DNA from: Methanosarcina sp. 2.H.T.1A.6
GTDB taxonomy: Archaea; Halobacteriota; Methanosarcinia; Methanosarcinales; Methanosarcinaceae
Assembly (NCBI RefSeq): GCF_000979455.1
Contig: NZ_JJOY01000005.1
Span: 186,001 to 250,000 of the forward strand
Reading direction: 5' to 3'
Length of the DNA stretch: 64,000 nt
Shown: positions 13,931 to 14,270 of the stretch, piece after piece
Layout: the number at the start of each line of letters is the position of its first letter
Position numbering within the stretch: the stretch's first letter is position 1
Position numbers and translations under genes: made by a program
Notes under the pieces: model-generated
What the model saw: only the letters and a program-made list of their open reading frames with translations
What the model was told of the DNA's origin: nothing
Databases searched by the model: none

Positions 13931-14002
13931 GCCAAGATGGCGGAGCGGCTACGCAATCGCCTGCAGAGCGATACCATTCCGGTTCGAATCCGGATCTTGG
14001 CT
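13931..14002 (+). tRNA. tRNA-Cys (GCA anticodon)
   Basis: 72-base cloverleaf: acceptor arms GCCAAGA and TCTTGGC, anticodon loop CTGCAGA giving GCA, T arm TCCGG TTCGAAT CCGGA, discriminator T. A TATA-like TTTATATATT lies about 55 bases upstream and a T run follows the gene. Confidence 0.97.
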
Positions 14003-14073: not shown

Positions 14074-14112
14074 TGCCAAGGTGGCGGAGCGGCTACGCAA
14101 TCGCCTGCAGAG
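14074..14112 (+). pseudogene. Truncated second tRNA-Cys (5' half only)
   Basis: The first 37 bases match the tRNA-Cys at 13931 except for one position (GCCAAGG for GCCAAGA), through D arm and anticodon loop (CTGCAGA). It then stops matching and runs into adapter sequence. It has its own TATA-like box (CTATATATT near 14035), so the real genome very likely holds a full second tRNA-Cys here. Confidence 0.85.
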
Positions 14113-14142
14113 CTGTCTCTTATACACATCTGACGCTGCCGA
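14113..14142. other. Illumina Nextera adapter sequence (assembly artefact)
   Basis: The 19-base Tn5 mosaic end CTGTCTCTTATACACATCT is followed by GACGCTGCCGA, the exact continuation of the Nextera read-1 adapter. The match ends at 14142, after which genomic DNA resumes. This is not biological sequence; it marks a misassembled join inside a tRNA gene. Confidence 0.96.
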
Positions 14143-14270
14143 GGCTTTTTAAACTACTTTTAAAATCTCTTCTCAAAGCTTTTTAATTTCCTATTTTTTA
14201 CCTTTTTTAGCCTGTAATTTAGAATCCGGATTTTTATAATTTTTATATTAAGAGAATACTAACTCTGGAC

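What the first reader, a model, noticed from the sequence alone, without database searches (positions are those of the whole stretch)
14074..14142. Illumina Nextera adapter embedded in a tRNA-Cys gene
A second tRNA-Cys, with its own TATA-like box, breaks off after the anticodon loop. The next 30 bases are the 19-base Tn5 mosaic end CTGTCTCTTATACACATCT plus GACGCTGCCGA, which is the Nextera read-1 adapter. A natural transposon would not carry the adapter half. The assembly is therefore wrong here; the 3' half of the tRNA, and perhaps more DNA, is missing. Near-identical neighbouring tRNA-Cys genes would explain a weak assembly point.
Basis: partly seen in the sequence, partly recalled or inferred. 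Interest (0 to 1): 0.7.

Follow-up and report, generated by a model that had tools for sequence, protein, structure and literature searches.

The report
Sequencing adapter left in a genome
The odd 30 bases inside this archaeal tRNA gene are a piece of the Illumina Nextera sequencing kit that was never trimmed from the reads and overwrote part of the gene during assembly, so the broken tRNA is a data error and not biology.

Summary
Confirmed artefact. Window 14113-14142 is an exact 30-base match to the reverse complement of the Nextera Tn5ME-A oligo: the 19-base synthetic mosaic end plus 11 bases of read-1 adapter. It sits inside a second tRNA-Cys that starts at 14075.

The proof comes from the rest of the assembly. 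Nine of its 108 contig ends run out into the same adapters (10-45 bases, all pointing outward). The longest i5 and i7 tails read on into standard sample indices, i5 504 (AGAGTAGA) and i7 703 (TTCTGCCT, read as AGGCAGAA). Two more exact copies lie inside other contigs; one is followed by a 21-N gap and an unmerged 121-base duplicate.

No other genome of the family (0 of 111) has the mosaic end, and this genome has no Tn5-type transposase DNA-binding domain.

One point changes: the 3' half is not deleted with an unknown amount of DNA. The adapter overwrote 29 bases in place; the tRNA length and the downstream GGCTTTTT are kept. Thirteen aligned Methanosarcina relatives carry two intact tRNA-Cys genes here, so the second tRNA-Cys is most likely intact in the organism. 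Interest is low: a clear example of buried adapter contamination.

The parts
13931..14002 (+). intact tRNA-Cys (GCA), first copy of the tandem pair
   Evidence: ARAGORN; Rfam RF00005 55.5 bits
14034..14045 (+). TATA-like sequence upstream of the second tRNA-Cys
   Evidence: read directly; the stretch is conserved in the closest relatives in the alignment; function as a promoter is inferred
14075..14112 (+). native 5' part of the second tRNA-Cys (acceptor 5' strand, D arm, anticodon arm up to GCAGAG)
   Evidence: identical to the first copy except one base; matches 13 relatives
14113..14131 (+). Tn5 synthetic mosaic end (Tn5MErev), sequencing-adapter residue
   Evidence: exact match, unique in window; oligo sequence in PMC4248319
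14132..14142 (+). GACGCTGCCGA, first 11 of 14 bases of the Nextera read-1 (i5-side) adapter, reverse complement
   Evidence: longer runs of the same adapter, up to the i5 index, at other contig ends
14143..14150 (+). native sequence resumes: GGC (last acceptor-stem bases of the tRNA) and T-run, in register with relatives
   Evidence: ungapped comparison with the first copy and alignment with 13 relatives

Best explanation
The 30 bases are untrimmed Illumina Nextera (tagmentation) adapter that entered a short-read assembly. A sequenced fragment ended in the anticodon arm of the second tRNA-Cys, and reads longer than that fragment ran on into the adapter (inferred). Because adapters were not removed (shown by the other tails), contigs ending at weak points carry adapter tails. 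At this join the adapter tail was laid over the true sequence when the two sides were placed or gap-filled at the correct distance (inferred from the conserved length; my confidence in this particular step is about 0.6). The organism most likely carries an intact second tRNA-Cys.
For: Exact identity to 30 bases of the adapter. Nine of 108 contig ends of the same assembly end in outward-pointing adapter (45, 42, 38, 38, 27, 26, 17, 14 and 10 bases), of both the i5 and i7 types. The longest read into index AGAGTAGA (as TCTACTCT, followed by GTGT of the P5 primer) and AGGCAGAA; these are Illumina indices 504 and 703. Interior copies: C20:34349 (23 bases of i7 adapter) overwrote intergenic DNA with near-conserved length. 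C52:53635 has 32 bases of adapter, then 21 N, then an unmerged duplicate of the preceding 121 bases (120 of 121 identical), a contig join blocked by an adapter tail. Fourteen relatives have two tRNA-Cys genes here by ARAGORN; in the 13 aligned the second is intact and the adapter has the same length as the native segment it replaces. The mosaic end is absent from 111 other genomes of the family, and there is no Tn5-type transposase DNA-binding domain in this genome, while the control search finds it in E. coli.
Against: No raw reads are available here, so coverage and clipping could not be inspected. The exact software step that gave an in-place overwrite is not known. The spacer from the tRNA to the next gene is 46 or more bases shorter than in the closest relatives, though inside the range of the genus; this is unexplained and may be a natural indel.
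Confidence: 0.99

Rival explanations
1. A natural Tn5/IS50-family or MITE-like insertion in the tRNA gene.
For: The 19-base mosaic end is derived from Tn5 ends, and tRNA genes are common insertion sites (general knowledge).
Against: The mosaic end is a laboratory replacement of the natural outside and inside ends (PMC4248319). The sequence runs on into synthetic adapter. It replaces rather than inserts, so there is no second end and no target duplication. No Tn5-type transposase domain in the genome, none of 111 relatives has the motif, and other copies carry sample-index bases.
Confidence: 0.002
2. Misjoin: the adapter marks the junction of two contigs that are not neighbours in the genome.
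For: Adapter tails mark contig ends elsewhere in the assembly.
Against: The same order (two tRNA-Cys genes, then the downstream gene beginning ATGGAC) is found in the closest relatives, aligned continuously across the join, and the replaced segment keeps its exact length.
Confidence: 0.01
3. The second tRNA-Cys is truly degenerate in this strain and the adapter merely happens to cover the defect.
For: The true bases under the adapter cannot be seen.
Against: The visible parts on both sides of the adapter are intact and in register, and 13 of 13 aligned relatives have an intact gene.
Confidence: 0.02

Closest known systems
Illumina Nextera / Tn5 tagmentation adapter read-through (Tn5ME-A; PMC4248319)
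   Same: All 30 bases are identical; elsewhere in the assembly the same adapter runs on into index and primer sequence.
   Different: Stops 3 bases short of the 33-base Tn5ME-A oligo because native sequence resumes.
Adapter tails on contig ends in public draft genomes and MAGs
   Same: The same 30-mer occurs in at least 120 stretches of the public species-genome collection; 121 of 127 occurrences start within 75 bases of the outward end of the stretch.
   Different: Here the adapter lies inside a 308-kb contig, about 108 kb from the nearer end, and overwrites a gene in place. None of the 127 occurrences listed is more than 499 bases from the end of its stretch.

Membership tests
Nextera adapter contamination | exact mosaic end plus transposon-specific adapter bases | tested here: met
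   30 of 30 bases
Nextera adapter contamination | further adapter copies in the same assembly, at contig ends and pointing outward | tested here: met
   9 of 108 contig ends
Nextera adapter contamination | one consistent sample index pair | tested here: met
   i5 504 and i7 703; all shorter tails are consistent with these
Nextera adapter contamination | clipped reads or coverage drop at the site | not testable with these tools
   no raw reads available
Natural Tn5/IS50-type element | Tn5-type transposase in the genome | tested here: not met
   PF14706: no match; the control genome E. coli matches
Natural Tn5/IS50-type element | two inverted ends and a target-site duplication | tested here: not met
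   a single end in the window, replacing rather than inserting
tRNA-Cys | complete cloverleaf | tested here: not met
   the second copy is not called by ARAGORN or Rfam as written; relatives have two called copies

The most novel reading that the evidence does not exclude
The only open biological reading is that the second tRNA-Cys, or the unusually short spacer behind it, differs in this organism from its relatives and is hidden or altered by the adapter.
Probability: 0.03. Interest if true: 0.1.

Novelty: not a real feature. Interest (0 to 1): 0.08.

Why it matters
It matters for data quality only. An annotator will count one tRNA-Cys gene too few in this genome, and similar buried adapters can look like gene disruptions or mobile-element ends. 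The case shows that adapter can be buried inside a long contig by an in-place overwrite, where a check of contig ends alone would miss it.

Tried and rejected
Natural Tn5 or other transposon: rejected (no transposase domain, no second end, adapter and index bases present). Misjoin of distant contigs: rejected (synteny with relatives). Two low-score Rfam hits at the site, far below gathering, are chance. A search for a published 54-contig Nextera Methanosarcina genome gave nothing that fits. The first ungapped tRNA comparison was off by one base and was redone.

Full report
Observation. The sequence at 14113-14142 is CTGTCTCTTATACACATCTGACGCTGCCGA. The first 19 bases are the Tn5 mosaic end, the only match in the window with up to three mismatches, against 0.01 expected. 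The next 11 are the start of the Nextera read-1 adapter. A published protocol gives the oligos Tn5MErev (CTGTCTCTTATACACATCT) and Tn5ME-A, whose reverse complement is matched here for 30 of its 33 bases (PMC4248319). The tRNA-Cys at 13931-14002 is intact. The second tRNA-Cys starts at 14075, one base later than reported, and matches the first at 38 of 39 bases before the adapter begins.

What was overwritten. In ungapped comparison with the first tRNA-Cys, the adapter fills exactly the length between GCAGAGC and GGCTTTTT; after it the sequence is again in register. ARAGORN finds two tRNA-Cys genes at this place in 14 relatives. In the 13 that I aligned, the second gene is intact and has that same length. 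The adapter is therefore a substitution of 29 bases (30 counting the shared C), not an insertion and not a deletion. Gene order on both sides agrees with the closest relatives.

The rest of the assembly. The window is part of a 308-kb contig (C11) of a 4.07-Mb, 54-contig assembly that holds nine exact mosaic ends, six at contig ends and three inside contigs. I read all 108 contig ends. Nine end in adapter, counting three shorter tails that stop inside the mosaic end, always pointing outward, with 45, 42, 38, 38, 27, 26, 17, 14 and 10 bases. Both adapter sides occur. The longest i5 tail runs GACGCTGCCGACGA-TCTACTCT-GTGT, so the i5 index is AGAGTAGA; the longest i7 tail runs CCGAGCCCACGAGAC-AGGCAGAA, so the i7 index is TTCTGCCT in primer orientation. 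These are Illumina indices 504 and 703 as tabulated in PMC4712552. All shorter tails agree with this pair. A tail that carries a sample index can only come from a sequencing library. Several tailed ends follow tandem or low-complexity repeats (C10, C35, C36, C51), the usual places where short-read contigs stop.

Other interior copies. At C20:34349, 23 bases of the i7-side adapter replace intergenic DNA, with the length kept to about one base against relatives. At C52:53635, 32 bases of i5-side adapter are followed by 21 N and then by a second copy (120 of 121 identical) of the sequence before the adapter: two overlapping contigs that could not be merged because one ended in adapter. A 14-base partial match at C53:50400 is probably of the same kind but could be chance.

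Rivals. A natural Tn5-like element is excluded in practice. The mosaic end is a laboratory sequence that replaces the wild-type ends (PMC4248319). There is one end only, and no Tn5-type transposase DNA-binding domain in the genome, although the control search finds it in E. coli. None of 111 other genomes of the family has the motif. A misjoin of distant contigs is contradicted by synteny and by the conserved length.

Mechanism. Shown: untrimmed adapter is present in this assembly at contig ends and at joins, from one index pair. Inferred: reads from fragments that end in the second tRNA-Cys ran into adapter; coverage there was poor, perhaps because two near-identical tRNA genes start 144 bases apart; and the adapter tail was then laid over the gap when the two sides were joined at the right distance. 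Which program did this cannot be told without reads.

How common. In 121 of 127 occurrences it starts within 75 bases of the outward end of the stretch, and the largest distance is 499. A copy about 108 kb from the nearer contig end, as here, is unusual in that sample, which is neither random nor complete.

What remains open. The spacer from the second tRNA-Cys to the downstream gene is 158 bases (from GCAGAG to ATGGAC), against 204-225 in the closest relatives and 142-193 in others of the genus. This may be a natural indel. The bases under the adapter are unknown in this strain; relatives have intact copies.

Verdict. The correction is that the adapter overwrote 29 bases in place and nothing more is shown to be missing at the join. 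It is not a biological feature.

Noticed in passing
G000:C52:53600-53800 (L039): 32 bases of Nextera i5 adapter, then 21 N, then a 121-base duplicate (120 of 121 identical) of the preceding sequence: a false duplication at a contig join.
   Followed up: yes
G000:C20:34349-34371 (L004): 23 bases of the i7-side Nextera adapter overwrite intergenic DNA in place, at nearly unchanged length.
   Followed up: yes
G000:C53:50400-50413 (L049): 14-base partial adapter match inside a contig, directly after a dispersed repeat; probably the same artefact.
   Followed up: partly
14146-14270: The spacer between the second tRNA-Cys and the downstream gene is 46 or more bases shorter than in the closest relatives and holds GAATCCGGA (14222), also found in the T arm of tRNA-Cys; a natural indel and chance are the likeliest reasons.
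   Followed up: partly
contig ends of C3, C12, C15, C23 of the window's assembly: Four contig ends share the same terminal sequence, so one repeat breaks the assembly at several places.
   Followed up: no
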